A stretch of DNA of 64,000 bases, from the NCBI GenBank assembly GCA_900470445.1, contig UCAU01000028.1, positions 62,196-126,195 on the forward strand. The letters run 5' to 3'. Position 1 is the stretch's first letter. Each line of letters opens with the position of its first letter. This document shows, in pieces, positions 20,059 through 35,043 of this stretch. The notes below the pieces were generated by a model. That model searched no databases, was not told the origin of the DNA, and was given only the letters and a program-made list of their open reading frames with translations. Made by a program: the position numbers and the translations under genes. The DNA comes from Hyphomicrobiales bacterium (lineage in GTDB: Bacteria; Pseudomonadota; Alphaproteobacteria; Rhizobiales; Devosiaceae).

Positions 20059-21087
20059 TCAGAGCGTCGCGTAAGCCTCTTCGGCGATGCTGAAATCGAC
20101 GAGATCGGCAACCGGTGGAACCGTACGGCCGGCTGCTTGAGCGGCCTCCGTCATGTTGCCGGTGATGTCGGCGGGATCGAACAGATAGAGCTTATAGTCC
20201 GGCGCTGGCTTCATCAGCGGGATCTGGAGTTCCATCTGACGGGTCTGCTGGGCCAGATCGAGGCCGAGATCGGCACCGTAATTGTCAACAACGATCTGCG
20301 CCGCATAGGCAGGATCGGCAAAGGCGTATTCCCAGCCCTTGATCATGGCGCGCGTGTATTTGACCAGCGTCTCGCGGTTTTCCGCGACGTAGTCCTTCTT
20401 GGCCACCATCAGACCGGCCTTCACGACATAGCCAATGTCGTCGAAGAGCGTCACGATGAAGTCCTGGTCCTGCACCATGCCCATATTCTCAAGCGTGATC
20501 GGCTGGTTGGTAGCAAAGCAGAGATAGACGTCGCCATCGCCGGCCAGCAGCGGTTCCGGCGAGAAGCCCGTGGGGATGACTTCGTAGTCGAGTGGCAGGC
20601 CGGCCTTGGCCAGCACTGCGTCGAAGATGGAGGTGTCGGATGGATTCTGGGCGAGAATGCGTTTGCCCACGAGGTCTTGCGGCGTGCGCACCGGGTTCGC
20701 GGCGAGAGACAGCAGTCCCGAGGGGCTCTTTGCCCAGGCAGAGCCGAGAATTTGAAAATCGTTACCCTTGCCGATGGCGTCAAGCAGGGGCATCCAATTG
20801 GCGAAGGCGAGCTGAGCCGCGTCGGAGGCAAGGGAAACCAGGACGTCAGGGGCGTTGGGTCCGCCGGCGAGGTAGGGCGCATCCAGGCCTTCCTCGGTGA
20901 AATAGCCCTGGTCGAGCGCGGCCCAGAAGCCGGCATATTCAACATTGGAGATCCAGCCAAAGGCGGTGGTGATACCGGCTGTTTCCTGGGCGAATAGCGG
21001 ACGGGGCAGCCCACCGGCGAGAAGGCCCGCTGCCCCTGCCATCAGCAGGTGGCGCCGGGTTAGTTCAAAATCCCTGTTCTTCGGCAC
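20059..21087 (-). CDS. ABC transporter substrate-binding protein, NMT1/THI5-like
   Basis: A 342-residue periplasmic binding protein, first gene of the minus-strand operon. The N-terminus has paired arginines and a hydrophobic segment (TRRHLLMAGAAGLLAGGLP), a plausible Tat-type signal. The mature domain (TTAFGWISNVEYAGFW) is a paralogue of the next protein. Two binding proteins for one permease/ATPase set suggest two related ligands, or a duplication followed by divergence. It is transcribed divergently from the RpiR regulator. Confidence 0.9.
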   Translation of the reverse strand: MPKNRDFELTRRHLLMAGAAGLLAGGLPRPLFAQETAGITTAFGWISNVEYAGFWAALDQGYFTEEGLDAPYLAGGPNAPDVLVSLASDAAQLAFANWMPLLDAIGKGNDFQILGSAWAKSPSGLLSLAANPVRTPQDLVGKRILAQNPSDTSIFDAVLAKAGLPLDYEVIPTGFSPEPLLAGDGDVYLCFATNQPITLENMGMVQDQDFIVTLFDDIGYVVKAGLMVAKKDYVAENRETLVKYTRAMIKGWEYAFADPAYAAQIVVDNYGADLGLDLAQQTRQMELQIPLMKPAPDYKLYLFDPADITGNMTEAAQAAGRTVPPVADLVDFSIAEEAYATL

Positions 21088-21144
21088 TTTTGACGTTCCC
21101 TTGGCATCAACTGACCTCCCGCTCTGCTTGCAAGTTTCTTCCCT

Positions 21145-21193
21145 TGCAATCTCTTGTTACAGTGAGGCTACCACACGTAATATCTTTTACAAG
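21145..21193. promoter_or_regulatory. Candidate RpiR operator region in the divergent promoter
   Basis: The 124-base gap between the binding-protein gene and the RpiR gene holds TGCAATCTCTTGTTACA (21146-21162) and CGTAATATCTTTTACA (21176-21191), both imperfect dyads of TGTAA/TTACA half-sites. A related TGTAATTTATTTTGCA occurs upstream of the nucleoside hydrolase gene. Binding by the adjacent regulator is inference. Confidence 0.4.
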
Positions 21194-21211
21194 ATTGTTT
21201 TGAGGCAAAAA

Positions 21212-22114
21212 ATGGTGATGCATAAAAAAGCGGCAACTGGCTATTTGCCCGCCGGTTCGGTCGTCGCGGAGCGCATCGAAGCGGCTTATCCCGAGATGTC
21301 GCAAGCCCTTCAGACGTTTGCAGATTTCGTGCTGAGTGAGCCAATCCGCATTGCCCATATGTCGATCAACGAGACCGTGCAGGCAACTGGGGTTTCAGTA
21401 GCAACGGCCAACCGGTTTGCGCGCAAGCTTGGCTTTGAGGGGTATGCGCAGTTTCGCGGGGAGGTGATCCGAGGTTTTGAGTCCATCTTCGAGCCGGTCG
21501 AACGGCTCAGGACGACACTGTCCAAGGGCTCAAGCGTACAGGATGCGGTATTGGCTTCTCTCGAGGAGGATTTGCGTAACCTCAGCGAGACCATGCAGGG
21601 GCTCGACGCCACGCGCATCGAGCAGGCCGTCAACATGATTTTAGCCGCGCGCAATATCTTCTTCATCGCCTTCGATGCGGCGGCGGCCTTGGCTAACGTC
21701 ATGTCCCACCGGCTCGAACTGGCCGGCCACTACGCCCGCACAATCGACAATGGCGGCGGCATGCTGTCGGCTTCGCGCGCACTTTCGCACTACGACGAGA
21801 ACGATCTGGTCATCGCGATCGCTTTTCCGCGCTATATGCGTGAGACGGTGGAACTGGCAACGGCCGCGCATCGGCGGTCCATCCCTGTCCTCTCGATTAC
21901 CGACAACCAGACTTCGCCACTGGCAAGGTTGGGTACGCTCACGCTCTATGTGCGCGCCCGCCGCACCTACAGTTCGACTTCGGACACTGCCATTCTCGCC
22001 ATGCTCGAAGCCTTGGCTGCCGGGGTGGCGGCCAAGTCACCGGGTGCTGCGGATGCCGCGCAGAAATTTGCGGACTTCGCCTATCCCTGGCTGATTACGC
22101 CGGAAGGCCGGTAG
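21212..22114 (+). CDS. MurR/RpiR-family transcriptional regulator
   Basis: A 300-residue regulator with an N-terminal HTH_6 domain (ETVQATGVSVATANRFARKLGF around residue 52-73) and a C-terminal SIS sugar-phosphate-binding domain from about 125 to 280. I start at ATG 21212 with GAGG six bases ahead; a longer frame runs back into the divergent gene and is not credible. It is flanked by the nucleoside-type operon on one side and a convergent nucleoside hydrolase on the other, so a ribose- or deoxyribose-phosphate ligand would fit (inference). Confidence 0.9.
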   Translation: MVMHKKAATGYLPAGSVVAERIEAAYPEMSQALQTFADFVLSEPIRIAHMSINETVQATGVSVATANRFARKLGFEGYAQFRGEVIRGFESIFEPVERLRTTLSKGSSVQDAVLASLEEDLRNLSETMQGLDATRIEQAVNMILAARNIFFIAFDAAAALANVMSHRLELAGHYARTIDNGGGMLSASRALSHYDENDLVIAIAFPRYMRETVELATAAHRRSIPVLSITDNQTSPLARLGTLTLYVRARRTYSSTSDTAILAMLEALAAGVAAKSPGAADAAQKFADFAYPWLITPEGR

Positions 22115-22119
22115 GCGCT

Positions 22120-23076
22120 TCAGGCACCCATCACCATGGTTTCTACAAATAGGGCTTCGAACTTTTCGGCTTCGACAGCGATGGCCACCTCGGCATTGGG
22201 CACCGTCGTGCCAGTGCGCCGTCGGTCGGGGATGACTTGGCCGCGGGTCAGTTCGCCCACGCATTCGACGTCGACCTGCATGGCTTCGAGGGATACGATG
22301 GAGGGATCTTCCGCCACGGCCACCGCTAGAGGATCGTGCAGGGCGCAATAGGTGATGTCCGGATATTGCGCCTGGTAGGCAGCCAGATAAAAGCGCGCTG
22401 CCTGCATGACGATACCGGCTGCCGGTCCGCCGCGCTTGGCAATGTCGTCCATCATCGGAGCGGTCAGCCTGGTCTTCATGGTGACGTCCATGCCGACCAT
22501 GGTGATCTTGGCGCCGGATTTGAGCACGATGCGGGCGGCCTCAGGATCGTTGAAGAAATTGGCGTCCGCGACGGGGCTGGGAATGCCGGGCACGCCTGGA
22601 TGCCAGATGGTGCCACCCATGAGCACGATGCCGGCGAGCTTTTCGGCAATATCGGGCGCCTTCATCAGGGCATGGGCCAAATTTGTCATCGGACCAACCG
22701 GAACCAGGGTCAATTCCCCTGGACTGGCCCGGACCAGTTCGATGATGAAATCGGGGGCCCAGATGTCGAGCGCCTTGGCCTTGGGGGCGGGCAGGTCGAC
22801 ATTGCCGATGCCGTTTGCCCCATGGATGCGGCTGCCGAGCTTGGCGAAGGGGCGGCTCAGGGCGCGCGAGGCGCCCGAGGCCACGGGAATTTCCGGGCAT
22901 CCTGCTGCTTCCAGAATTTGTAGGCTGTTCCGCGTCGCAGCGGCGACGTCAATATTGCCATAGGTCGTGGTCAACGCCTCAAGCGTAATGCCGGGCCGAT
23001 TGACGGCGTAAAGGATCGCCATGGCGTCGTCGATTCCGGTGTCGACATCGAGGATGATGCGGCATTGTTTTGGCAC
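22120..23076 (-). CDS. Inosine/uridine-preferring nucleoside hydrolase
   Basis: A 318-residue nucleoside hydrolase that cleaves the N-glycosidic bond of (deoxy)ribonucleosides. The calcium-binding N-terminal motif DVDTGIDDA is at residues 10-18, and further ligand residues lie in VPVGPMTNLA and near the C-terminal HDPLAVA. I start at the GTG at 23076 (VPKQCRIIL): GGAG stands 7 bases ahead, and the longer frame adds a 22-residue tail not usual in the family. It ends 5 bases from the RpiR gene, tail to tail. Confidence 0.9.
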   Translation of the reverse strand: MPKQCRIILDVDTGIDDAMAILYAVNRPGITLEALTTTYGNIDVAAATRNSLQILEAAGCPEIPVASGASRALSRPFAKLGSRIHGANGIGNVDLPAPKAKALDIWAPDFIIELVRASPGELTLVPVGPMTNLAHALMKAPDIAEKLAGIVLMGGTIWHPGVPGIPSPVADANFFNDPEAARIVLKSGAKITMVGMDVTMKTRLTAPMMDDIAKRGGPAAGIVMQAARFYLAAYQAQYPDITYCALHDPLAVAVAEDPSIVSLEAMQVDVECVGELTRGQVIPDRRRTGTTVPNAEVAIAVEAEKFEALFVETMVMGA

Positions 23077-23388
23077 GAGGCGGCTCCGAAAGTGCGTGTG
23101 GGGGAATGTTCCGGAGCCTATCGACTGTAATTTATTTTGCAATTCCTCGCGGAGGTGAAAATTTCACACCAGCGGGTGTGAGCCAAGGGTGGCGATTTCT
23201 CGGCTTCGTGCCGCCTCTGCTGCGTGAATCCGCACGGAACCTATTTCCACCCGCCATTGCTCGAAGTGTTGGCGCGGGGCATGGTGATCTCCGGCGCGGA
23301 ATACCTATATGGATCGTGTCTAGAGCACTGGAACGGCCGAGCCGTAATTCAACTTAAACGGCAAAGCGGACCCCAAGAGGAGCACAGC
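23077..23388. other. 312-base divergent intergenic region
   Basis: No gene is visible. It separates the nucleoside hydrolase gene from the F420 island. It holds TGTAATTTATTTTGCA at 23127-23142 (candidate RpiR site upstream of the hydrolase), a short hairpin around 23160-23180 (TTCACACC/GGTGTGA), and the AAGAGGAG Shine-Dalgarno of the next gene. Confidence 0.5.
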
Positions 23389-23814
23389 ATGAGCGACTTC
23401 AATGATCAGGTGATTGCCGATTTCAACCAGAACGGGGGGCATCCCGGGGGCATGTTTGCGGGCGCTCCGGTGCTGCTGCTGCACGCTATCGGCGCCAAGT
23501 CCGGCTTGGAGCGGGTTCAGCCGCTCATGTATCTTCGCCCGCAGAACGACGGTCCCTGGTATATTTTTGCCTCCTATGGCGGCGCCCCCAAAGACCCCGC
23601 ATGGTTCCGTAACCTACAGGCGCACCCCGATGTCGAAATCTCCGTTGGCGATGGCAAGACCATCGAGAAAATCCCGGTCCGTGCGCGGGTCGTCGAGGGC
23701 AGCGAACGCGACACCATTTATGCCGAACAGGCCCGCCGCTTTCCGCAATTCGCCAAATACGAAGAAGTGACGACCCGCGATATCATCCCGGTGATTGAAC
23801 TCACCCCGCGCTGA
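23389..23814 (+). CDS. Deazaflavin-dependent nitroreductase-like protein (DDN family)
   Basis: A 141-residue split-barrel protein of the F420-binding DDN/nitroreductase family common in mycobacteria. Recognisable stretches are LLLHAIGAKSGLERVQPLMYL, FASYGGAPKDPAWFRNL and RARVVEGSERD. The start ATG follows AAGAGGAG. Members use reduced F420 to reduce quinones, nitro compounds or other oxidised organics. It lies 120 bases before the F420-dependent glucose-6-phosphate dehydrogenase gene on the same strand, which supports a real F420 link. Physiological substrate unknown. Confidence 0.88.
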   Translation: MSDFNDQVIADFNQNGGHPGGMFAGAPVLLLHAIGAKSGLERVQPLMYLRPQNDGPWYIFASYGGAPKDPAWFRNLQAHPDVEISVGDGKTIEKIPVRARVVEGSERDTIYAEQARRFPQFAKYEEVTTRDIIPVIELTPR

Positions 23815-23890
23815 TCGGCCCCGCATGACTGGGCAGCAAATCGGAAAGACGGTCAGCGACTTTCCGATTGGCAATTGACTTGCTTGGAAT

Positions 23891-23908
23891 TTTGACCAAA
23901 CGATCAAA
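23891..23908. promoter_or_regulatory. Candidate operator of the F420 operon, copy 1
   Basis: An 18-bp imperfect dyad TTTGACCAAACGATCAAA (half-sites TTTGAyC/GrTCAAA) ends 26 bases before the fgd ATG. Its reverse complement matches 17 of 18 bases of a second site at 28565-28582. The form is typical of TetR-family operators; no TetR gene lies in the window. Confidence 0.65.
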
Positions 23909-23934
23909 TAAATGGTCGAGGGAGAATTTTGAAC

Positions 23935-24948
23935 ATGCGCTTCGGGTATAAGGCGTCGGCCGAGCAGTTTGCTCCCAGTGCCCTGCTTGGCTTCGCCGTG
24001 GAGGCGGAGCAGGCCGGGTTTGACAGTGTTTTCGTCAGCGACCATTTCCAGCCCTGGAAACACACCGATGGCCATGCCCCGTTTGCCCCGGCCTGGATGG
24101 CGGCAGTGCTGGCGCGGACCGAACGCATTGTGCTGGGCACGTCGGTGCTGACGCCGACATTTCGGATGCATCCCTCGGTGGTGGCGCATGCCTTCGGCAC
24201 GCTGGGCGCCATGTTTCCCGGTCGGGTGATCCTGGGCGTCGGCACGGGGGAATCCCTCAATGAAGTGCCGGCGACTGGCCTCGAATGGCCCGAACTCAAG
24301 GAGCGCTCGGCGCGACTGCGCGAGGCGGTCAAGCTGATCCGCTTGCTCTGGAGCGAGGACCGCGTGAGCTTTGAGGGCGAGTATTACAAGACCGTCAACG
24401 CCACCATCTACGACAAGCCGGCCGAGCCGGTGCCGATCTATATCGCGGCCGGTGGCCCGCTTAACGCCAAATATGCAGGCCGGGCCGGCGACGGTTTTAT
24501 CTGCACGTCCGGCAAGGGCGCTGAGCTTTATGTCGATCAGCTGCTGCCCAATGTCGAAATCGGCCGGGCCGAGTCCGAGCTGGCGGGAAAACCCTTCGAG
24601 CGCATGATCGAGGTCAAGGTGTCGTTCGATACCGATCCCGGCCGGGCCTTGAATGACACGCGCCATTGGGCCGCGCTTTCCCTCTCGGCCGAGGAAAAGC
24701 ACTCGGTGCAGGACCCCGCTGAAATGGAACGACTGGCATCGGAACTGCCGATCGAACGGGTCGCCAAGCGCTGGATTGTCTCCAGCGATCCCGACGAGCA
24801 TGTCGCGTCTATCAAGACCTATATCGATTATGGCTTCGATCATCTGGTCTTCCACGCGCCGGGCACCGACCAGAGCCGATTTCTGGCCCTTTACGCCAAG
24901 GAAATCCTGCCGCGCTTGCGCCAACTGACGGTGGACTCGCCATCATGA
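23935..24948 (+). CDS. fgd: F420-dependent glucose-6-phosphate dehydrogenase
   Basis: A 337-residue luciferase-like TIM barrel that oxidises glucose-6-phosphate to 6-phosphogluconolactone while reducing F420. Sequence is very close to mycobacterial FGD1: [11 protein letters not shown] at the N-terminus, SDHFQPWKH with His37 and Trp41 (FGD1 His40, Trp44), LGVGTGE with Glu106 (Glu109), and the phosphate-binding TSGKG lysine (Lys194). A GGGAG lies ahead of ATG 23935; a TTG six bases upstream is a possible alternative start. It overlaps cofE (ATGA). Fgd is classically actinobacterial, so presence in an alphaproteobacterial setting suggests transfer. Confidence 0.93.
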
Positions 24949-25778
24949 CGCTGCCGCGCTTTTCCGCCTGGGCCGTGACCGGTATCCCCGAAGTACACGA
25001 CGGCGACGATCTGGCCACGCTGATCTGCGACGCGGTGGACAAGCAGGCTGAAGGCGACGCCGAACTCGCGCTCGCCGAAGGCGATATTCTCGTCGTCGCC
25101 AGCAAGATCGTCGCCAAGGCGGAGGGGCGCCTGGTGCCGGCGACAGACCGCGAAAAGGCCATCACCGAGGATACTGTCCGTGTCGTGGCAGAGCGGGTGC
25201 ATGCTGGCGGCGTCACGCGCATCGTGGAAACGCGGCAGGGGCTGATCATGGCGGCGGCGGGCATTGACATGTCCAATGTGCCGGATGGCTTCGCGCTACG
25301 TCTGCCCGAGGACCCAGACCTGTCCGCGCAACAGCTTTGCGCCATTCTGCGCGAACGGCTGGGCATTTCGCTGGGCATTATCATCACCGATACATTTGGG
25401 CGGCCCTGGCGCGTCGGCCAGACCGATGTCGCCATCGGCGCGGCCGGCCTGCAATTGACCGAAGACATGCGGGGCGGCAACGATGCCAATGGACGCCCAC
25501 TGCATGCCACTATCGCGGTGGTCGCCGATGAAATCGCCGGCGCCGCCGATCTGGTCAAGGGCAAGGCAGGCGGCCTGCCGGTCGCTGTATTGCGCGGGCT
25601 GCATCGGCTGGTCACCGGCCTTGATGCGCCGGGTGCGAGATCGCTGGTGCGCTCGCTGGAGGAGGACATGTTCCGCTTCGGTTCGGCGGAAGCCTACCAG
25701 CTTGGTTATGACACAGCGCGGGCGGAATTTGAGGGCGGCGCCGCCGCCACGCCGCTCGCGGGTAGACAGGGAAATTGA
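24945..25778 (+). CDS. cofE: Coenzyme F420-0:L-glutamate ligase
   Basis: A 277-residue CofE/FbiB-N enzyme that adds the first and further glutamates to F420-0 using GTP. Family motifs are the N-terminal substrate-binding [17 protein letters not shown] and the [21 protein letters not shown] stretch near residue 145. It lacks the C-terminal nitroreductase-like domain of FbiB and is of normal CofE length. It overlaps fgd by 4 bases and runs into the importer genes. It is the only F420 biosynthesis gene in the window, which fits salvage of imported F420-0. Confidence 0.92.
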
Positions 25779-25780
25779 TC

Positions 25781-26737
25781 ATGCGCATTTTCGCGCTCGC
25801 GCTCGCACTCGCCGCTGCCTTGCCTGCACTAGTCGTCAATCCGGCCCTCGCCGCCACCACCTATCCCCTGACGCTGCAAAATTGCGGCATGGCCGTGACC
25901 TTCGACAAAGCTCCCACGCGCGTCGTCAGCATCAAGTCGACGGCGACCGAACTGCTGCTGTCGCTCGGCCTCGGTGACCGCATTGTCGGCGTCGGGTTCC
26001 AGGATGGGCCCTTGCCCGACGAACTGGCGGCGGCGGGCAGCAATCTGAGCGTTCTCTCGGACAAGCTGCCATCCCAGGAAGTGGTGCTCGAGACCGAGCC
26101 CGATTTTGTCTATGGCGGCTGGGAAAGCAATTTCGCGGCCGACGGCGCTGGCGAGCGGCCGACCCTGGCCGCACTGGGCGTTGCCAGCTACGTGGCGCCG
26201 GCCGCCTGCCGCAGTGTCAAGCCACCGAAATTGACCTTCGATTCCATCTTCGGCGAGTTCGAAGAAATGGGCGCTATTTTCGACGTCGAAGCCGCCGCAA
26301 CGGCACTGGTCGACGCCCAGAAGGCCAGCCTTGCCGCTGTAAAGCCCGATCCGCGCGGCCTCACCGCCGTGTGGTATTCCTCGGGCACCAAGGCCCCCTA
26401 CGTGGGCGCAGGCAACAATGCCCCAGCCATGGTGATGGAGGCGCTTGGCCTCAAGAACATTTTTGGCGATGTCGATGACGGCTGGATTTCGGCGAGCTGG
26501 GAAGCCGTTGTCGATGCCAATCCCGACGTGATCGTGCTGGTCGATGCCGCGTGGAACTCCGCCGCACAGAAAAAGAAGCTGTTGGCGGAAAATCCGATCA
26601 CCAGCCAGCTCGACGCGGTGATCAATCAGCGCTACCTCGTCATTGCCTTCCCGGCGTCCGAGGCCGGCGTGCGCAATGTACCGGCCACGCTCGACATGGC
26701 GCGCCAATTGACGGCGCTTGATCTGCCGACGCCGTGA
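25781..26737 (+). CDS. Putative F420-0 ABC transporter substrate-binding protein
   Basis: A 318-residue FecB/BtuF-like periplasmic binding protein with a clear signal peptide (MRIFALALALAAALPALVV, cleavage near ALA-AT). I use ATG 25781, eight bases after AGGGA. Two Cys residues (NCGM, AACRS) flank the usual binding lobes. The order fgd-cofE-binding protein-permease-ATPase matches the actinobacterial cassette proposed to import F420-0 (families TIGR03868, TIGR03869, TIGR03873, recalled, not searched). A heme, B12 or siderophore ligand is the alternative. Confidence 0.82.
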   Translation: MRIFALALALAAALPALVVNPALAATTYPLTLQNCGMAVTFDKAPTRVVSIKSTATELLLSLGLGDRIVGVGFQDGPLPDELAAAGSNLSVLSDKLPSQEVVLETEPDFVYGGWESNFAADGAGERPTLAALGVASYVAPAACRSVKPPKLTFDSIFGEFEEMGAIFDVEAAATALVDAQKASLAAVKPDPRGLTAVWYSSGTKAPYVGAGNNAPAMVMEALGLKNIFGDVDDGWISASWEAVVDANPDVIVLVDAAWNSAAQKKKLLAENPITSQLDAVINQRYLVIAFPASEAGVRNVPATLDMARQLTALDLPTP

Positions 26738-27753
26738 TGGCGCCTAGAGCATCCTACGGTCTCGCCTATACGGGCCTGTGGATTCTATTGCTCGCCAGCG
26801 TGGCTATCGCGGTTACTATTGGGCCGGCCAGCATCTCGGTAAGCGAGGTTTGGCAGACCATTCTGCACCATCTGGGGCTGGCTGCGGACAGCTCTGTATC
26901 GCGCCTGCGCGACGCCATTGTCTGGGAATTGCGCTTGCCGCGCGTGCTGGCGGCCCTGGGCGTCGGCGCCGGGCTGGCGCTGGCGGGCACGGTGATGCAG
27001 GTGCTGACCCGCAACCCGCTGGCGGACCCCTACCTCCTGGGGCTGTCGTCCGGCGCGGCACTAGGCGCGGTGATTTTCCTCCTCGCCGGAGCGGCGCTGC
27101 TCATGCCGCTGGGCGCCTTTATCGGAAGCCTTACCGCGCTCGCTCTGGCCCTGCTGATCGCCAGATTATTGGGTGGAGCGACGCCGTCGCGCGCCATTCT
27201 GGCCGGCATCTGCATTGCCGCGCTCGCCTCGGCGGGCACTTCGCTGCTGATCTTCTGGTCGGCAACGGGGGATTCCTACCGCGAAATCCTGAGCTGGCTG
27301 ATGGGGTCGCTGAGCGGCACTACCTGGAGCGATGCGGGCCTGGTTGCCCTGGGACTCCTGCTTTGCGCGCCCGTCATCCTGTTGTCTGGGCGGGGTCTTG
27401 ATGCCTTCGCCTTCGGCGAGACGGCCGCTGCGGGCCTCGGCATCGACGTCACAAGGCAGCGCTGGACGCTGCTGGCGGCGACGGCGCTGTTGACCGGCGT
27501 CATGGTCGCCATCGGCGGCGCCATCGGTTTTGTCGGCCTTGTCGTGCCCCACGCGGTTCGCCTTGCCGTGGGCTCGCGCCACCGCGTGCTGCTGCCCATG
27601 TCCATGCTGGTCGGCGCCATTTTCATGCTGTGGAGCGACACCGCCGCGCGCAGCCTGTTCGATCCGCGTGAATTGCCGGTCGGCATTGTCACGGCGCTGG
27701 TGGGCGCGCCGGCATTCCTGCTCATCCTGCTACGCTACCGGCGGGTGACATGA
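26737..27753 (+). CDS. Putative F420-0 ABC transporter permease (FecCD family)
   Basis: A 338-residue permease with about ten hydrophobic helices, of the FecCD/BtuC family; conserved stretches include GDPYLLGLSSGAALGA-like LADPYLLGLSSGA and FVGLVVPHAVRL near residue 265. Start ATG 26737 overlaps the binding-protein stop by one base; the GTG three bases upstream is an alternative. It forms the channel for the binding protein upstream and the ATPase downstream. Confidence 0.87.
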   Translation: MAPRASYGLAYTGLWILLLASVAIAVTIGPASISVSEVWQTILHHLGLAADSSVSRLRDAIVWELRLPRVLAALGVGAGLALAGTVMQVLTRNPLADPYLLGLSSGAALGAVIFLLAGAALLMPLGAFIGSLTALALALLIARLLGGATPSRAILAGICIAALASAGTSLLIFWSATGDSYREILSWLMGSLSGTTWSDAGLVALGLLLCAPVILLSGRGLDAFAFGETAAAGLGIDVTRQRWTLLAATALLTGVMVAIGGAIGFVGLVVPHAVRLAVGSRHRVLLPMSMLVGAIFMLWSDTAARSLFDPRELPVGIVTALVGAPAFLLILLRYRRVT

Positions 27754-28541
27754 GCGGGCTCGTCATCAAGAACGCCATCGTACGGGCAGGGGAACGGACC
27801 ATTCTGGCCGATGTCGGTTTTTCGGCCCCCGCCGGCGCCGTCACCGGCCTGATCGGCCCCAATGGCGCAGGCAAGTCGACCCTGATTGCCGCCGTGATGG
27901 GCCAGCGGCGTCTGTCCGGTGGCACGATTGCCTTTGATGGCATTGACCTGCCCGGAACGCGAGCCGCCGAGCGGGCCAGGCTATGCGCCCATGTCGAACA
28001 ATTCGCCACCACCACCGAGCGGCTCAGCGTGCGCGATGTGGTGGCCCTGGGCCGCGTGCCCTTTCAGTCAGACTGGCAGGCCGTGCCCTCGCCCCATGAC
28101 GACGTCGTGGTGACGGACGCGATCGAGGCTCTGGGCATGTCCGCCTTTGGCGACCGCCTCTACCACCGGCTGTCAGGCGGCGAGCAACAGCGTATCCAGA
28201 TCGCCCGTGCCCTGGCGCAGGAACCGCAGCTCCTGCTGCTCGACGAGCCGACCAGCCATCTCGATATCAAGGCGCAATTGCTGGTGCTGGAAGTGTTGCG
28301 GCAGCGGGCGCGGGCGGGCTGTACTATCGTGGTGGCCATGCACGATCTCAACCTGGCCGCCCGCTATTGCGATCATCTCGTCGTGCTCGATAATGGACGG
28401 ACTGCAGCCGAGGGGACACCGGCCGATGTGCTGGCCCCGGACCTGCTCTTGCGCGTCTATGGCGTGCAATCGACCATCGTCACCGTGCCCGGCAGGGACT
28501 ATCCCATCGTGATTTACGACTCCGCCGTCAATTCCGATTGA
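27750..28541 (+). CDS. Putative F420-0 ABC transporter ATP-binding protein
   Basis: A 263-residue ABC ATPase of the FecE/BtuD type. Walker A GPNGAGKSTL, signature LSGGEQQR, Walker B LLLLDEPTSHLD and the H-loop MHDLNLA are intact. It overlaps the permease by 4 bases and ends 65 bases before the LLM oxidoreductase. It completes a three-gene importer placed directly after cofE. Confidence 0.9.
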   Translation: MSGLVIKNAIVRAGERTILADVGFSAPAGAVTGLIGPNGAGKSTLIAAVMGQRRLSGGTIAFDGIDLPGTRAAERARLCAHVEQFATTTERLSVRDVVALGRVPFQSDWQAVPSPHDDVVVTDAIEALGMSAFGDRLYHRLSGGEQQRIQIARALAQEPQLLLLDEPTSHLDIKAQLLVLEVLRQRARAGCTIVVAMHDLNLAARYCDHLVVLDNGRTAAEGTPADVLAPDLLLRVYGVQSTIVTVPGRDYPIVIYDSAVNSD

Positions 28542-28564
28542 CAATAGCGCGCCGTCAGCCAAAA

Positions 28565-28582
28565 TTTGATCGTCTGGTCAAA
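28565..28582. promoter_or_regulatory. Candidate operator of the F420 operon, copy 2
   Basis: TTTGATCGTCTGGTCAAA, a near-dyad, differs at one base from the reverse complement of the site at 23891-23908. It ends 24 bases before the LLM oxidoreductase ATG, almost the same distance as copy 1 from fgd. It suggests that the LLM gene has its own promoter under the same regulator. Confidence 0.65.
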
Positions 28583-28606
28583 TTTCAGTGCGGGGAGTGC
28601 GCAGCC

Positions 28607-29608
28607 ATGGAATTCGGGATTACTTTCAAAGGCTTTGTCGACGCCGAGCGGGCCCGATATCTGGTGCGGGCGGCCGAATATGCCGGCTTTACCTATTGCT
28701 GGTTCTACGATTCCCACATTCTCTGGCGCGATTGCTACGCCGCCATCGCCATGTGCATGGAACACACCGAGCAGATGCGCTTCGGCCCGCTGGTCACCAA
28801 TCCCGATGTGCGCGACTGGTCGGTCGCAGCCTCCATCTTCGGCTCGCTGTCCAAGCAGAGCGGCGGGCGGTTCGATCTTGCCGTCGGGCGCGGCGATAGC
28901 TCGATGCGCGTCATGGGCAAGAAGCCCGCGACCCTGGCCCGTGTCGCCGATTTCATCACCAAGACCAAGGCCATGATCCGCGGCGAGGAAGTTTCCTATG
29001 GCGAAATCCCCGCGCCGGTGAAATTTCCCTGGGCCGTCGGCCACGAAATCCCCAGCTGGATTGCCGCCTATGGCCCATTGGCGCTCAAGACCGCCGGCGA
29101 ATCCGCCGATGGCGTGGTGTTGCAGATTGCCGATCCGGGCCTGTGCAAATGGTTCACCGACCAGTGCCTCGAAGGGGGCAGGGCGGTCGGCAAGGACATG
29201 TCCAATTTCCGCTCAATGGCGGCGGCCCCCGCCTATTTCGGCGACAAGAAAAAGGCGATCGAAGCGGTCAAATGGTTCCCCGCCATGGTGGGCAACCATG
29301 TCGCTGATATCGTCGAAAAATACGGCGCCGATTCCGATCAGGTGCCCAAAAGCCTCACCAGCTATGTCGAAAAGCGCCGTGGCTACGACTATTCCAAGCA
29401 CGGCCAGCCCGATAACCCGTTCCTTGATTTCATCACCGATGACATCGTGGAAAGTTTCTGCGTGCTGGGCGAACCGCAGGACCACATCGCCAAGATCCGC
29501 GACCTCGAAACGGCCGGCGTCACCCAGTTCAACATCTATCTCGACTCCGGTGACGAGGAAGAAATCATCTCCCGCTACGGCCGCGAAGTCATCCCGGCAT
29601 TCCGCTGA
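28607..29608 (+). CDS. LLM-class F420-dependent oxidoreductase, CPS_4043-like
   Basis: A 333-residue luciferase-like TIM barrel. The sequence (FYDSHILWRD, GPLVTNPDVRDWS, AVGRGDSSMRVMGKKPATL) fits the CPS_4043 family of predicted F420-dependent oxidoreductases (TIGR03842, recalled). Start ATG 28607 follows GGGGAG. It is in line with the F420-0 importer and shares its candidate operator with fgd, so it is probably a consumer of reduced F420. FMN use cannot be excluded, because LLM proteins divide between the two cofactors. Substrate unknown. Confidence 0.87.
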   Translation: MEFGITFKGFVDAERARYLVRAAEYAGFTYCWFYDSHILWRDCYAAIAMCMEHTEQMRFGPLVTNPDVRDWSVAASIFGSLSKQSGGRFDLAVGRGDSSMRVMGKKPATLARVADFITKTKAMIRGEEVSYGEIPAPVKFPWAVGHEIPSWIAAYGPLALKTAGESADGVVLQIADPGLCKWFTDQCLEGGRAVGKDMSNFRSMAAAPAYFGDKKKAIEAVKWFPAMVGNHVADIVEKYGADSDQVPKSLTSYVEKRRGYDYSKHGQPDNPFLDFITDDIVESFCVLGEPQDHIAKIRDLETAGVTQFNIYLDSGDEEEIISRYGREVIPAFR

Positions 29609-30450: not shown

Positions 30451-31488
30451 TCATGCAGAGCTGGGCGCTCCGCGCAAACGGTGCCGCCATGATTCATGAC
30501 TTGCCGGGCCACTTGATTGCCGCTCGACCAGATGGGGGACAAGGTTGATCCGCTGGGGTGGCAATTCATTCATGAATGGCGACTGCCCCGCGCGGGACAG
30601 CAACACTCTGACCGCTGCAATACCCATTTCGCGGTGGGGCATGTGTACGGTGGTCAGCTGGGGCGATATCTGCGTGGCGATCGCATAATCGGCATGACCA
30701 ACGACGGAGACATCCTCTGGAATGCGTAGTCCAAGCCGCATCAGTTCGGATACTACCGTCACGGCGACAATGTCGCTGCCGCAAAAGAACGCCGTGGGCT
30801 CAAAACCGCTCGCCGCCATGGCGGTTACAGCCTCGCGCAGGTCGCCGGCCGCCCGATCGTCAGAGAAGCCAATCTCACGCAGCTCCATGTCTTCCACTTC
30901 AGCGATTGCATCGGCAAAGCCGGCGAGGCGCGCCAGCCGCCCCGGATATCCCAGCCGTCCATGTGCGTAGACGACGCGGCGGTGACCCAGGGATTGCAAA
31001 TGGTGCGCAACGTAAACACCTGCTTCTACGTCCGCCGCGCTCACCTGATCCTTCTGCCACAAGGGCGGAACGATGTGATTGACCACCACGGCCGGTAGCG
31101 CGCTGCTCAGGGCCGTCTCAAGCATCGCCGGCGTCTGCGGTCCGACCAGGATATAGCCAATGGCGCCGTTCTCGATGCGCGGTAGCTCGGCTGGATCATC
31201 CAGCCAACGCACCGACATGACACAGCCGTGGGCAGTCGCTTCATGGTCAATGCCGTTTTGTACGTCGACCCATAATTCCCGGCTGGCTGTCGCCCGGTTC
31301 TTGAAGATCACCTCAATGTTCTGGCCGGCACCTTGGCGTCGGGCGTTGTAGCCAAGGGCGGCAGCCGTATCCACGATCAGGTGCCGCGTCGGCTCGCTCA
31401 CCCCGGGCTTCCCGCTCAGTGCGCGGGAAACTGCAAATTTGGAAATACCCAAATGGTCGGCAATTTGCTGGATCGTTACCCGCTTCAT
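30451..31488 (-). CDS. LacI-family transcriptional regulator
   Basis: A 345-residue regulator with an N-terminal LacI HTH (VTIQQIADHLGISKFAVSRALSGKPGVS), a hinge helix and a periplasmic-binding-protein-like ligand domain. I start at ATG 31488 (MKRVTIQQ); an ATG 21 bases upstream, preceded by GAGAGG, is a possible earlier start. It is divergent from the oligopeptide-type transporter operon starting at 31836 and upstream of the hydratase, so it probably represses the sugar operon until a glycoside or sugar binds. Confidence 0.9.
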   Translation of the reverse strand: MKRVTIQQIADHLGISKFAVSRALSGKPGVSEPTRHLIVDTAAALGYNARRQGAGQNIEVIFKNRATASRELWVDVQNGIDHEATAHGCVMSVRWLDDPAELPRIENGAIGYILVGPQTPAMLETALSSALPAVVVNHIVPPLWQKDQVSAADVEAGVYVAHHLQSLGHRRVVYAHGRLGYPGRLARLAGFADAIAEVEDMELREIGFSDDRAAGDLREAVTAMAASGFEPTAFFCGSDIVAVTVVSELMRLGLRIPEDVSVVGHADYAIATQISPQLTTVHMPHREMGIAAVRVLLSRAGQSPFMNELPPQRINLVPHLVERQSSGPASHESWRHRLRGAPSSA

Positions 31489-31835
31489 GGCGCATGCCCG
31501 AAGGCACATCCTCTCGTTATTTTTATTTTTGTTAGGCTGCGCCTTTTGCAGTGTCAATGTGAATTGCTCTCTATCGCCCGTTTTGTGACCTTTTGATACT
31601 GCTTGGCAGGCCTGCCGCCTTAAAAATGTCTTTGAAATTCAAGGTTTTGTCGGGCTCGTTCTTCTGAGGTCGTTTTCAAGATACAAAACAAACAACAAAA
31701 TTTATGGGTTGACCTTCGTGTTTTCGTATGGTCAGTTTGGATAACAAAAAAGACAAAAACGCACTTTTAATGCGGAGGCAAGGTTTAACTTGCCGGCAGG
31801 GGAGGGACTCGCCGAAGGGCGAGGGTTGAGAGCGC
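31489..31835. other. 347-base divergent regulatory region
   Basis: No gene is visible. The stretch 31630-31780 is clearly AT-richer than its surroundings, as expected of a double promoter. It contains a perfect 12-bp palindrome GGCAGGCCTGCC at 31605-31616, a TTGAAATTCAA near-palindrome around 31630-31642, and TTGACC at 31709-31714. I cannot assign the LacI operator with confidence. Confidence 0.5.
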
Positions 31836-32972
31836 ATGGCCATTGTCGAGGTCCAGCAGGCTGCAAAAGTGCCGGCCGCAGACCAGGTGGGTCTGGCCAG
31901 TCAGCGCCAGCTGGTGTGGCTCAAATTTACCGAGCACAAACTGGCCGTGGTCAGCCTTGTGGTTATCGCGCTCATTTATCTGATCGGCGCATTTTGCGAG
32001 TTCGTGGCACCCCGCACACCGGACCACTACGATTCCGCCTATACAATGCTGGCGCCCCAGCCACTGAAGTTCTTCTATACCGATGAGAACGGCGCCACAC
32101 AGTTCGGCCTGCACGTCACCGGCTTTTCATCGCAACGCGACCCGGCAACGCTCCGCCGCGTGTTCACGGCCGATGAATCGATCCGTGTGCCGGTATCGTT
32201 CTTCGTAAAGGGGCAGCCCTATCACATGTGGGGCTTCATTCCGGGTGATATCCATCTGATTGGGCCGGTCGATCCTGCCCAGCCATTCTATCTGCTGGGC
32301 TCGGATCGTATGGGTCGTGATGTGCTCAGCCGGGTGATCTACGGGACGCGCATATCGACCTCCATCGGCCTCATCGGGGTTGCCGTTAGCCTAGTGCTCG
32401 GTGTGATCCTGGGCGGTATTTCTGGCTATTTTGGCGGTGTGGTCGATAACCTCATCCAGCGCGTGATTGAATTCATCATGTCGGTGCCCACGATTCCATT
32501 GTGGATGGGCCTGGCGGCGGCGATCCCGGTGACCTGGTCTCCGGTGCTGGTCTATCTCATCATAACTATGATCATCTCGCTGATCGGCTGGACCTCGCTG
32601 GCGCGTGAGGTGCGCGGGCGCTTCATGTCCTGGCGGAACGAGCCATTCGTCACGGCTGCCCGGCTCGATGGCACCAGTCAGATGACGATCATCGGACGTC
32701 ATCTTGTCCCGGGCTTCATTTCGCACATCATCGCGTCGGTGACGCTGGCCATTCCAGCCATGATCATTGCCGAAACCTCATTGTCCTTCTTGGGCATTGG
32801 GCTGCGGCCACCGGTCGTGAGCTGGGGTGTGCTGCTGCAGGAGGCGCAAAACATTCGCTCGCTGGCAGAAGCACCCTGGCTGTTGGCGCCCGGCGTACTC
32901 GTCATCATCACCGTGCTTGCCCTGAATTTCCTTGGTGATGGCCTGCGCGACGCGGCGGACCCCTATTCATGA
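31836..32972 (+). CDS. ABC transporter permease, DppC/OppC type
   Basis: A 378-residue inner-membrane permease; six or so hydrophobic segments, with a long periplasmic insert between helix 1 and the BPD_transp domain (residues 60-150), as in oligosaccharide-type relatives of DppC. The GSDRMGRDVLSRVIYGTR signature and EAA-like loop (FVTAARLDGTSQMTIIGRHLVPG) are clear. It opens an operon whose order is unusual: permease C, two ATPases, enzyme, binding protein, then permease B last. Confidence 0.92.
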   Translation: MAIVEVQQAAKVPAADQVGLASQRQLVWLKFTEHKLAVVSLVVIALIYLIGAFCEFVAPRTPDHYDSAYTMLAPQPLKFFYTDENGATQFGLHVTGFSSQRDPATLRRVFTADESIRVPVSFFVKGQPYHMWGFIPGDIHLIGPVDPAQPFYLLGSDRMGRDVLSRVIYGTRISTSIGLIGVAVSLVLGVILGGISGYFGGVVDNLIQRVIEFIMSVPTIPLWMGLAAAIPVTWSPVLVYLIITMIISLIGWTSLAREVRGRFMSWRNEPFVTAARLDGTSQMTIIGRHLVPGFISHIIASVTLAIPAMIIAETSLSFLGIGLRPPVVSWGVLLQEAQNIRSLAEAPWLLAPGVLVIITVLALNFLGDGLRDAADPYS

Positions 32973-34006
32973 GTACCGAACCCCTTTTGAGCATTCGTGG
33001 CCTCAACGTGCACTTCAAACTGCGCGAAGGGCTGATCCGAGCGGTGGATGGCGTCGATGTCGAGGCGCATGCAGGCAAGACGCTGTGTATCGTGGGCGAG
33101 AGCGGGTCGGGCAAGTCGATGCTGGCCCGCTCGATCCTGCAGATCGTTTCCCCGCCCGGTCGGGTGACCAGCGGCGAAATCATGTTCCGCCGCCCCGGCC
33201 AGGCGCCGGTGGACATTGCCAAGCTCGATCCGAAAGGAAAGCCGATCCGGGCCATTCGGGGCCGCGATATCGCGATGATCTTCCAGGAACCGATGAATTC
33301 GCTGTCGCCAGTCCACAGTATTGGCGATCAACTCGTCGAGAAAATCCTGCTGCATCATAAGATCGGGCAGAAGGCCGCAATCGACCGCGCCGTCGACGCG
33401 CTGGATAAGGTTGGCATCCCCAATCCCAAGCAGCGATTGGCCAACTATCCGTTCGAGCTCAGCGGCGGCATGCGGCAGCGCGTCATGATTGCTATGGCGC
33501 TGGCTTGCCAGCCGGCCCTGCTCATAGCCGACGAACCCACAACGGCGCTCGACGTCACCACCCAGGCCAATATTCTCGATCTGATTGCCGGCTTGCAGGA
33601 CGAGTTCGGCATGGGCGTAATTTTCATCACGCACGATCTCGGCGTCGTGGCCGAAATCGCCGATGAGGTCGCGGTCGTCTATCTGGGGCGGGTCGTCGAA
33701 CGCGGCAGCGTCGACGATATTTTCTACAATCCGCAGCACCCCTATACTTTGGCTTTGTTGTCTTCGATCCCAAAGCTCGGAGCCCGCCGGGCCAAGGGGC
33801 AGCGCCTGCATGCGATCGAGGGCATGGTGCCCCACCCGCTCAACCGTCCGGCGGGTTGTCCGTTCAATACGCGCTGCCCGGAGGCAAAGGCAGGGCTGTG
33901 CGACGTCGTTGATCCGCGCAATTTGCAATTGGAGCCGGGCCATTTCGTCGCGTGCCACATGCGGGATCCCGAAGTGGCGCAACTGCGGACCGAGGTGTTG
34001 GCATGA
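32969..34006 (+). CDS. ABC transporter ATP-binding protein, DppD/OppD type
   Basis: A 345-residue ATPase with Walker [10 protein letters not shown], signature LSGGMRQR, Walker [13 protein letters not shown] and the C-terminal Cys-rich oligopeptide-transporter extension ([15 protein letters not shown]) that can hold an iron-sulfur cluster. It overlaps both neighbouring genes by 4 bases. Confidence 0.92.
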
Positions 34007-35043
34007 GCGTTACGCCAGCAGAAGGCGGCCTGCTCATGCGGGCGCGCGACCTCAAGGTGCATTTCCCGATCAAGCGTGGCGTGCTCAAGCGCACGGTTGG
34101 CCAGGTCCGGGCTGTTGATGGTGTCAGTCTCGACATACGTTCGGGCGAGACGCTCAGCATTGTGGGCGAGAGCGGCTGCGGCAAGACTACGTTGGGACAG
34201 GCGCTGGTGCGCGTGCTCGAGCCCACCGCCGGGAGTATCGAATATCGCAAGCCGGGCGAAGGGCCTGCCGATATCGCCCATCTCGGGGAAACCGAATTGC
34301 GGCGCTACCGTTCCGATATCCGCATGATCTTTCAGGATCCGTTCGCGTCGCTCAATCCGCGGCGGCGCGTCGTCGACATTATCGGGGAATCGCTGCGCAA
34401 TTTTGGCGTGACCGACGAGCGTGATGTGGAAGCCCGCGTCGCCAGCCTGCTGCGCAAAGTTGGCTTACGGCCCGAATATATGAGCCGCTATCCCTACGCC
34501 TTTTCGGGTGGCGAACGGCAGCGCATCGGCATTGCCAGGGCACTGGCGGTTCATCCGCGGCTTGTTGTTGCCGATGAGTGCGTTTCGGCCCTCGACGTTT
34601 CCATTCAGGCCCAGACACTCAATCTGATGCAGGATCTGCAGGAAGAGTTTGCGCTCACCTACGTCTTCATCAGCCACGATCTGAGCGTGGTCGAATATAT
34701 CTCCGACCGGGTGGCGGTGATGTATGCTGGGCGGATCGTCGAGTTGAGCGACACCGAACCGCTTTTTGCCAAGCCACGCCACCCCTATACCGCCGCGCTG
34801 CTCGCCTCGGTGCCTCGGCCCGATCCGCGCAGTGCTCGGATGCGCAAGCATATGCGGCTCAAGGGCGAAGTGGCTGATCCGGCCAATCGCCCCAGCGGCT
34901 GTGCCTTTCATCCACGCTGCCCATTCGCCACGGACCTTTGCCGCGCCGAAGACCCGCAATTGCGCTCGGTCGGCTCGTCCGATGTGGCCTGCCATTTTGC
35001 CGACAGCCTCGATCTTAAGGGAGTGAACGCCGATGCTGCATGA
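34003..35043 (+). CDS. ABC transporter ATP-binding protein, DppF/OppF type
   Basis: A 346-residue ATPase, partner of the previous one. Walker [11 protein letters not shown], signature FSGGERQR, Walker [12 protein letters not shown] (Cys in place of the usual Pro) and the C-terminal [14 protein letters not shown] motif are visible. The ATG at 34003 overlaps the upstream stop; a longer frame into that gene is not credible. It overlaps the next gene by 11 bases. Confidence 0.91.

What the first reader, a model, noticed from the sequence alone, without database searches (positions are those of the whole stretch)
23389..29608. Coenzyme F420 salvage island in an alphaproteobacterial genome
fgd, cofE and a FecBCD-like importer sit in one overlapping operon, flanked by two predicted F420 users (a DDN-like protein and a CPS_4043-like LLM oxidoreductase). 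Family knowledge: a three-gene ABC cassette next to cofE, in one case also fgd, was proposed in Actinobacteria lacking the rest of F420 biosynthesis to import F420-0. The same arrangement here suggests an alphaproteobacterium that takes F420-0 from other microbes, adds the glutamate tail with CofE, reduces it with glucose-6-phosphate via Fgd and spends it on its own reductases. No cofC, cofD, cofG or cofH is in the window.
Basis: partly seen in the sequence, partly recalled or inferred. Interest (0 to 1): 0.92.

Follow-up and report, generated by a model that had tools for sequence, protein, structure and literature searches.

The report
Borrowed F420 cofactor island in Devosia
This bacterium, probably a Devosia, carries genes predicted to take up a nearly finished rare redox cofactor (F420) made by other microbes, finish it and use it, although the genes to make that cofactor from scratch were not found in its genome.

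Summary
At 23389-29608 (+) lie a Ddn-like FDOR, Fgd, CofE, a FecBCD-type importer and an LLM oxidoreductase. SBP and permease pass the cut-offs of the putative F420-0 importer models; the ATPase is best matched by its model but below cut-off. The genome (99.97% complete) shows no CofC, CofD or CofH. Of 136 genomes of its family, 69 carry cofE, all with the SBP gene just downstream; 0 have CofD and 0 have CofH over cut-off. The F420H2-reductase family PF04075 occurs in 32 of the 69 and 0 of the 67 others. Salvage is the best reading; cargo F420-0 is inferred, not shown.

A refinement: of 38 actinobacterial importer genomes, 38 have CofE, 25 CofD and 2 CofH over cut-off. In ten Cellulomonas-type loci cofD directly follows the importer; there the only known useful cargo is Fo. 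The family may thus import 5-deazaflavins generally. My searches of the held library showed no paper on such an importer.

The parts
23389..23814 (+). Ddn-like F420H2-dependent reductase (FDOR-A, PF04075); predicted user, not a conserved island gene
   Evidence: PF04075 93.8 bits, TIGR00026 84.7 bits; family occurs in 32 of 136 family genomes, all 32 with cofE
23935..24948 (+). [quoted passage not shown] TTG frame start 23929)
   Evidence: TIGR03554 501 bits; full-length match to solved F420-dependent glucose-6-phosphate dehydrogenases 5lxe and 3b4y
24945..25778 (+). cofE: F420-0:L-glutamate ligase, single domain, no FbiB-type nitroreductase part
   Evidence: TIGR01916 228 bits; NF009810 (449 positions) matched only over 14-257; solved CofE 7uld, 2phn, 2g9i
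25781..26737 (+). substrate-binding protein of the importer, class III fold
26734..27753 (+). FecCD-type permease of the importer
   Evidence: TIGR03869 439.4 bits over cut-off 437.35; PF01032
27750..28541 (+). ATPase of the importer
   Evidence: TIGR03873 304 bits, best family but below cut-off 372.4; PF00005
28607..29608 (+). LLM-class oxidoreductase of the CPS_4043 family, predicted F420 user
   Evidence: TIGR03842 481 bits; nearest solved relatives are methylenetetrahydromethanopterin reductases; on the same strand in 33 of 33 main cassette loci

Best explanation
The island is a cofactor-salvage operon. The binding protein captures, in the periplasm, F420-0 (or a related form that already carries the phospholactyl tail) released by other microbes. 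The permease/ATPase brings it into the cell. CofE adds the glutamate tail. Fgd reduces the cofactor with glucose-6-phosphate, and the LLM oxidoreductase and the FDOR spend the F420H2. Shown here: gene identities, no match for CofC, CofD or CofH, co-occurrence and linkage of cofE with the importer across the family, and confinement of PF04075 to those genomes. Inferred: the cargo, its source, the direction of transport and every enzymatic step.
For: Models and cut-offs. No CofD, CofH or CofC in the own genome. Family of 136 genomes: CofD 0 of 136; CofH over cut-off 0 of 136, with 7 weak sub-cut-off hits; cofE over cut-off 69 of 136; SBP over cut-off 66 of 136; all 66 are among the 69; the 3 further cofE genomes have a sub-cut-off SBP in the same place; in 69 of 69 the SBP match starts 152-615 nt after the cofE match on the same strand. 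PF04075: 32 of 69 cofE genomes, 0 of 67 others, Fisher p 4.5e-12; inside the window's genus 31 of 60 against 0 of 15, p 1.9e-4 (uncorrected for relatedness). CofE-SBP-permease-ATPase together in 33 of 33 main cassette loci, true Fgd in 27. The alphaproteobacterial cassettes, apart from the second copy L062, form one clade, SH-aLRT 98, beside the actinobacterial ones.
Against: No ligand is shown for any TIGR03868 protein in what I saw; NCBI's kind for it is hypothetical equivalog. The deazaflavin for which I saw supernatant values is Fo (PMC11917521 passages; its presence also in PMC11104420), which a genome without CofD could not use. The ATPase misses its model's cut-off and the permease barely passes. 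The importer also occurs with CofD in 25 of 38 Actinobacteria, so it is not specific to F420-0 salvage, and there cofE lies within the fetched locus in only 15 of 38. CofG was not searched separately, and an unrelated enzyme replacing CofD cannot be excluded. PF04075 is missing from 37 of the 69 cofE genomes.
Confidence: 0.72

Rival explanations
1. The importer carries Fo, not F420-0, in all its hosts; Devosia uses Fo, or Fo phosphorylated by its own flavokinase, directly, and CofE acts on something else.
For: Fo is the form for which I saw supernatant values. In 24 of 38 actinobacterial importer genomes CofD is over cut-off and CofH is not. No SBP position clearly separates hosts with CofD from hosts without. 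Fo phosphate works with F420 enzymes (PMC8498797 passage).
Against: CofE acts on the carboxylate of the lactyl tail (family knowledge), which Fo lacks, yet cofE is beside the importer in 69 of 69 family genomes with cofE and present in 38 of 38 Actinobacteria.
Confidence: 0.13
2. The importer carries finished F420-n, and CofE only lengthens tails.
For: F420-n would serve Fgd directly; nothing in the sequence excludes longer tails.
Against: F420-2 and longer exceed the usual porin limit of about 600 Da (recalled), and none of the seven island genes is a TonB-dependent receptor; the strict company of CofE favours a tail-less cargo. Outer-membrane receptors elsewhere in the genome were not searched.
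Confidence: 0.1
3. The ABC system is an ordinary heme, B12 or siderophore importer that sits next to F420 genes by chance.
For: Same fold and superfamily as BtuF, heme and siderophore binding proteins; PF01497/PF01032. The heme ATPase model comes within 18 bits of its cut-off (243.3 of 261).
Against: No heme, B12 or siderophore model reaches its cut-off, and each scores below the F420-0 model for the same protein. The linkage to cofE holds in 69 of 69 family genomes, and importer genomes in another phylum carry cofE in 38 of 38.
Confidence: 0.04
4. Devosia makes F420-0 by unrelated enzymes, and the importer only recovers leaked cofactor.
For: Absence of homologues cannot exclude unrelated enzymes.
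Against: CofC, CofD and CofH all gave no match; CofD 0 of 136 and CofH over cut-off 0 of 136 in the family.
Confidence: 0.03

Closest known systems
Putative F420-0 importer cassette TIGR03868/TIGR03869/TIGR03873 of Actinobacteria (Jonesia denitrificans, marine actinobacterium PHSC20C1; model text recalled)
   Same: Same three genes; SBP and permease over cut-off; cofE beside them in part of the actinobacterial loci (15 of 38 fetched loci) and, as recalled for PHSC20C1, fgd too
   Different: Gram-negative host; cofE linked in 69 of 69; CPS_4043-type LLM oxidoreductase built in; ATPase below cut-off; separate clade
4mlz, periplasmic binding protein of Jonesia denitrificans (solved structure)
   Different: Actinobacterial; the title seen names no ligand
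Cellulomonas-type importer-cofD-cofC clusters (seen here)
   Same: Same importer family next to late F420 genes (one example checked against models)
   Different: They keep CofD and, in nine of ten loci, CofC, but their genomes gave no CofH match, so they would need Fo, not F420-0
Solved F420-dependent glucose-6-phosphate dehydrogenases Fgd1 (3b4y, 5lxe)
   Same: Full-length match, 459-468 bits; the residues recalled as phosphate-binding (Lys198, Lys259, Arg283) are kept
   Different: Those hosts make F420 themselves (family knowledge)
BtuF/BtuCD vitamin B12 importer
   Same: Class III binding-protein fold and FecCD permease family
   Different: All B12 models score below their cut-offs

Membership tests
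Putative F420-0 ABC importer (TIGR03868/69/73) | Substrate-binding protein over the curated cut-off | tested here: met
   414.1 against 392.4 bits
Putative F420-0 ABC importer (TIGR03868/69/73) | Permease over the curated cut-off | tested here: met
   439.4 against 437.35 bits
Putative F420-0 ABC importer (TIGR03868/69/73) | ATPase over the curated cut-off | tested here: not met
   304.1 against 372.4 bits, though the best of 193 families; hence called a variant, not filed as a full member
Putative F420-0 ABC importer (TIGR03868/69/73) | Binds and transports F420-0 | not testable with these tools
   No ligand data; only gene company and phylogenetic profile
F420-0:L-glutamate ligase CofE (TIGR01916) | Full-length match over cut-off | tested here: met
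   227.8 against 180.65 bits, profile 2-244 of 244
[quoted passage not shown]
   501.2 against 420 bits
[quoted passage not shown] a 20-residue tag offset in the 3b4y chain assumed) | tested here: met
   All three aligned to the same residue in the printed alignment to 3b4y (counted by eye)
FDOR-A / Ddn-like reductase (PF04075) | Match over gathering score | tested here: met
   93.8 against 22 bits
TIGR03842 (CPS_4043) LLM oxidoreductase | Match over cut-off | tested here: met
   480.6 against 295.45 bits; use of F420 itself not tested
F420 producer (complete biosynthesis) | CofC, CofD and Fo synthase in the genome | tested here: not met
   No match for CofD, CofH or CofC
Heme, vitamin B12 or siderophore importer | SBP, permease or ATPase over a heme, B12 or siderophore model cut-off | tested here: not met
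   SBP: EitA 139.5 of 640, BtuF 22.3 of 234, IsdE 22 of 298.65; permease BtuC 238.7 of 461 (PRK09535) and 233.6 of 334 (PRK03784); ATPase heme 243.3 of 261, the nearest miss

The most novel reading that the evidence does not exclude
The importer family is a general 5-deazaflavin vitamin importer that supports an F420 cross-feeding economy. One receptor type, recognising the deazaflavin head, brings in Fo in Cellulomonas-type and other Actinobacteria that keep CofD and CofE but lack Fo synthase, and brings in F420-0 in Devosia, Pelagibacterium and several Arthrobacter that keep only CofE. F420 would then behave like B12 or thiamin: made by some, scavenged at different stages by others, including most sampled members of a Gram-negative genus.
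Probability: 0.52. Interest if true: 0.82.

Novelty: new variant of a known kind. Interest (0 to 1): 0.68.

Why it matters
The passages I saw of a 2021 review (PMC8498797) discuss organisms that make F420; the words uptake, salvage and auxotroph do not occur in its main text. If this reading is right, most sampled members of a culturable genus (60 of 75) depend on F420 made by neighbours, genome counts that look for the whole pathway miss such users, and the cofactor becomes a shared good. It is directly testable: named Devosia strains carry the cassette and a close relative of the binding protein has a solved structure (4mlz) that could be soaked with ligand. An F420 importer might also help biocatalysis in hosts that cannot make the cofactor.

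Tried and rejected
A close copy on known plasmids: a tblastn of the SBP against 72,556 plasmid records gave 1265 records with a match, all below 60% identity, the best listed 37.8%. A marker residue telling Fo importers from F420-0 importers: none clear; the best column differs by 0.53 in frequency between 25 sequences from hosts with CofD and 13 from hosts without. The idea that the importer marks CofD loss: rejected, 25 of 38 Actinobacteria have CofD over cut-off (29 of 38 at E 0.001). The more distant SBP group (L076-L080, 34-38% identity to the window SBP; L076 at 269 bits against TIGR03868) was set aside as a paralogue: the five loci show no cofE.

Papers: no paper on an F420 importer was seen in the held library. 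Searches: F420 with five uptake or transporter phrases, 0 papers; three model names and two phrases, 0; Cellulomonas with fbiC and F420, 0; F420 with salvage, 63 papers, 25 listed; Devosia with F420, nine listed: by title eight on mycotoxins and one on a ciliate consortium; 130, 14, 20, 30 and 279 papers, of which 25, 14, 15, 15 and 10 listed; of these I saw listings and starts of abstracts, and passages of eight papers (PMC8498797, PMC6450877, PMC11104420, PMC3012119, PMC12855090, PMC3288000, PMC11917521, PMC7253369). No paper was read whole. The 2017 Ney paper is not held. The origin of the TIGR models was not found in print here, so their text is recalled. PMC3012119, PMC12855090 and PMC3288000 gave nothing on F420 uptake in the passages seen.

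Limits of counts: the 38 Actinobacteria are those among the best 80 of 110 relatives found; the other 30 were not examined. Their genome completeness is not given; L143 lies on a 6.6 kb contig and groups with Cellulomonas that have CofD, so its lack of CofD may be an assembly gap. Fisher tests treat related genomes as independent. The tree used 84 of 120 rows after removing near-identical ones, by the quick method, with long branches flagged (L169, L062, L077, L154, L175, L061). The output was cut, so only part of those ORF lists was seen.
Full report
WHAT IS THERE. The window (G000:C43:62196-126195, genome 4.80 Mb in 108 contigs, 99.97% complete) holds on its + strand, in order, a Ddn-like FDOR, Fgd, CofE, a substrate-binding protein, a FecCD-type permease, an ATPase and an LLM oxidoreductase. 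NCBIfam assigns Fgd, CofE, SBP, permease and LLM over curated cut-offs, the permease barely; the ATPase is best matched by TIGR03873 but under its cut-off. CofE lacks the nitroreductase half of FbiB. In mycobacteria that half reduces dehydro-F420-0 (PMC6450877, passages), so the salvaged compound should already be reduced F420-0 unless another reductase exists; this is inference. CofD, CofH and CofC gave no match in the genome, while the same searches passed the cut-off in 3 of 14 control genomes each.

WHO CARRIES IT. The genus is most likely Devosia: contigs of genomes in the window's genus (g1) have the lengths of named Devosia records, for example G040:C8 49951 bases = L104 D. riboflavina, G079:C3 394872 = L103 D. 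subaequoris, G036:C229 200582 = L172 D. psychrophila. In that family of 136 genomes cofE passes its cut-off in 69, in three of 16 genera. The SBP passes in 66; all 66 are among the 69, and the other 3 (G013, G051, G052) have a sub-cut-off SBP in the same place. In 69 of 69 the SBP match begins 152-615 nt after the cofE match on the same strand. CofD is found in 0 of 136. CofH passes its cut-off in 0 of 136, with 7 weak hits below it, none of them in the window's genus. One genome, G081, has only a short cofE-like stretch of 35.5 bits with a stop inside.

ISLAND ANATOMY IN RELATIVES. Of 40 loci fetched, five are paralogues without cofE (L076-L080) and two are divergent second copies (L061, L062). 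In the other 33, CofE-SBP-permease-ATPase are together on one strand in 33, and the LLM is on the same strand within the locus in 33, upstream of the rest in 6. Fgd at 83% identity or more is present in 27; five Pelagibacterium-type loci have a 33-34% LLM in its place; one (L100) shows neither. One such replacement (L073) falls in TIGR03557 over cut-off and not in TIGR03554, as do LLM genes beside cofE in an Arthrobacter (L162) and a Cellulomonas (L165); in two Pelagibacterium-type examples the lysine of the Fgd SGKG motif is not kept. The reductant may therefore differ while the salvage core stays.

AN INDEPENDENT TEST. PF04075, the Ddn-like family (use of F420H2 is family knowledge), occurs in 32 of 136 genomes. 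All 32 are cofE genomes: 32 of 69 against 0 of 67, Fisher p 4.5e-12; within the window's genus 31 of 60 against 0 of 15, p 1.9e-4. In 30 of the 32 the gene lies on another contig than the cassette or more than 50 kb away; only G000 and the same-species G076 have it nearby (coordinates). So linkage does not explain it. The tests are not corrected for relatedness, and 37 cofE genomes have no PF04075, but the direction is what a working cofactor supply predicts.

THE SAME IMPORTER IN ANOTHER PHYLUM, AND WHAT IT CARRIES. A scan of a collection of 84,980 species genomes with the SBP alignment found 110 relatives; the best 80 were kept: 42 alphaproteobacterial loci, 36 of them titled Devosia or Pelagibacterium, and 38 actinobacterial ones (Cellulomonas, Isoptericola, Arthrobacter, Jiangella, Glaciibacter and others). 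In those 38 genomes CofE is over cut-off in 38, CofD in 25 and CofH in 2 (G150, G165). So 24 have CofD without CofH over cut-off, and 12 have neither. cofE lies within the fetched locus in 15 of 38 (some loci are short). In ten loci (L142, L145, L146, L149, L150, L152, L155, L159, L168, L174) the cofD match lies on the same strand within about 100 nt of the ATPase match, and cofC is nearby in nine of them (identities checked against models for L168). None of these ten genomes has a CofH match. For them the only known useful cargo is Fo. PMC11917521 (passages) cites a study that measured Fo and F420 in cells and supernatants, and gives 1.2-2.6 micromolar Fo in supernatants of Streptomyces, M. 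smegmatis and Rhodococcus; F420 values were not in the passages I saw. Among hosts without CofD, Arthrobacter sp. ATA002 is titled a complete genome (L160/G154) and has CofE but no CofD or CofH match. No SBP position clearly separates the two groups, which fits one receptor type that reads the shared deazaflavin head; this is inference.

ORIGIN. On a quick tree of SBP plus permease (84 rows) the alphaproteobacterial cassettes form one clade (SH-aLRT 98) beside the actinobacterial ones, except the divergent second copy L062; long branches are flagged. This fits one old acquisition followed by vertical inheritance and loss; the direction of transfer is not settled.

COMPARISON WITH WHAT IS KNOWN. 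The cassette is named by NCBI as a putative F420-0 transporter, kind hypothetical equivalog; the rationale (a few Actinobacteria, mostly without the rest of the pathway) is recalled. My searches of the held library gave no paper with the model names or an F420 importer. The review PMC8498797 (passages) reports trace F420 in two Alphaproteobacteria, Oligotropha carboxidovorans and Paracoccus denitrificans, and says that predicted alphaproteobacterial producers encode Fgd; its main text does not use the words uptake, salvage or auxotroph. New here, as far as these searches go: the family-wide Gram-negative case, the PF04075 profile test, and the Actinobacteria with CofD but no Fo synthase that widen the cargo to Fo.

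VERDICT. I put about 0.8 on a deazaflavin importer in general and 0.72 on the full F420-0 mechanism in Devosia. The decisive bench tests are listed.

Noticed in passing
L142, L145, L146, L149, L150, L152, L155, L159, L168, L174: Importer genes directly followed by cofD, with cofC nearby in nine of ten and cofE within the fetched locus in five, in Cellulomonas-type genomes without a CofH match: predicted Fo-import and F420-assembly clusters.
   Followed up: yes
L071-L075 (Pelagibacterium-type): Fgd is replaced by a 33-34% identical LLM; the one tested against models (L073) is TIGR03557, the same kind that sits beside cofE in an Arthrobacter and a Cellulomonas. The SGKG lysine of Fgd is not kept in L072 and L073, so another hydride donor is likely.
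   Followed up: partly
L061 (G074) and L062 (G092): Two genomes carry a second, divergent cofE-importer cassette whose CofE scores higher on TIGR01916 (266 and 247 bits) than the window's. L061 shows no Fgd-like match, L062 only a partial 34% one. G092 seems to be a metagenome-assembled genome, so its second copy could be contamination.
   Followed up: partly
L076-L080: A paralogous importer (SBP 34-38% identical to the window SBP) without cofE in the locus, with a conserved neighbouring protein in all five; two examples of that neighbour (L080, L077) matched no Pfam family. Cargo unknown.
   Followed up: partly
G081:C52:36875-37123: A short cofE-like stretch (35.5 bits) with an in-frame stop in a 2.0 Mb genome of the same genus: possibly a remnant after loss of the pathway.
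   Followed up: no
window 30451-35043: Downstream oligopeptide-type ABC transporter genes (OppC-like permease 31836-32972, two ATPases to 35043) beside a LacI-type regulator (30451-31557, - strand); unrelated to F420 as far as seen.
   Followed up: no
window 20059-23142: Upstream NMT1/THI5-like binding protein, RpiR-type regulator and a nucleoside hydrolase; no link to the island was tested.
   Followed up: no
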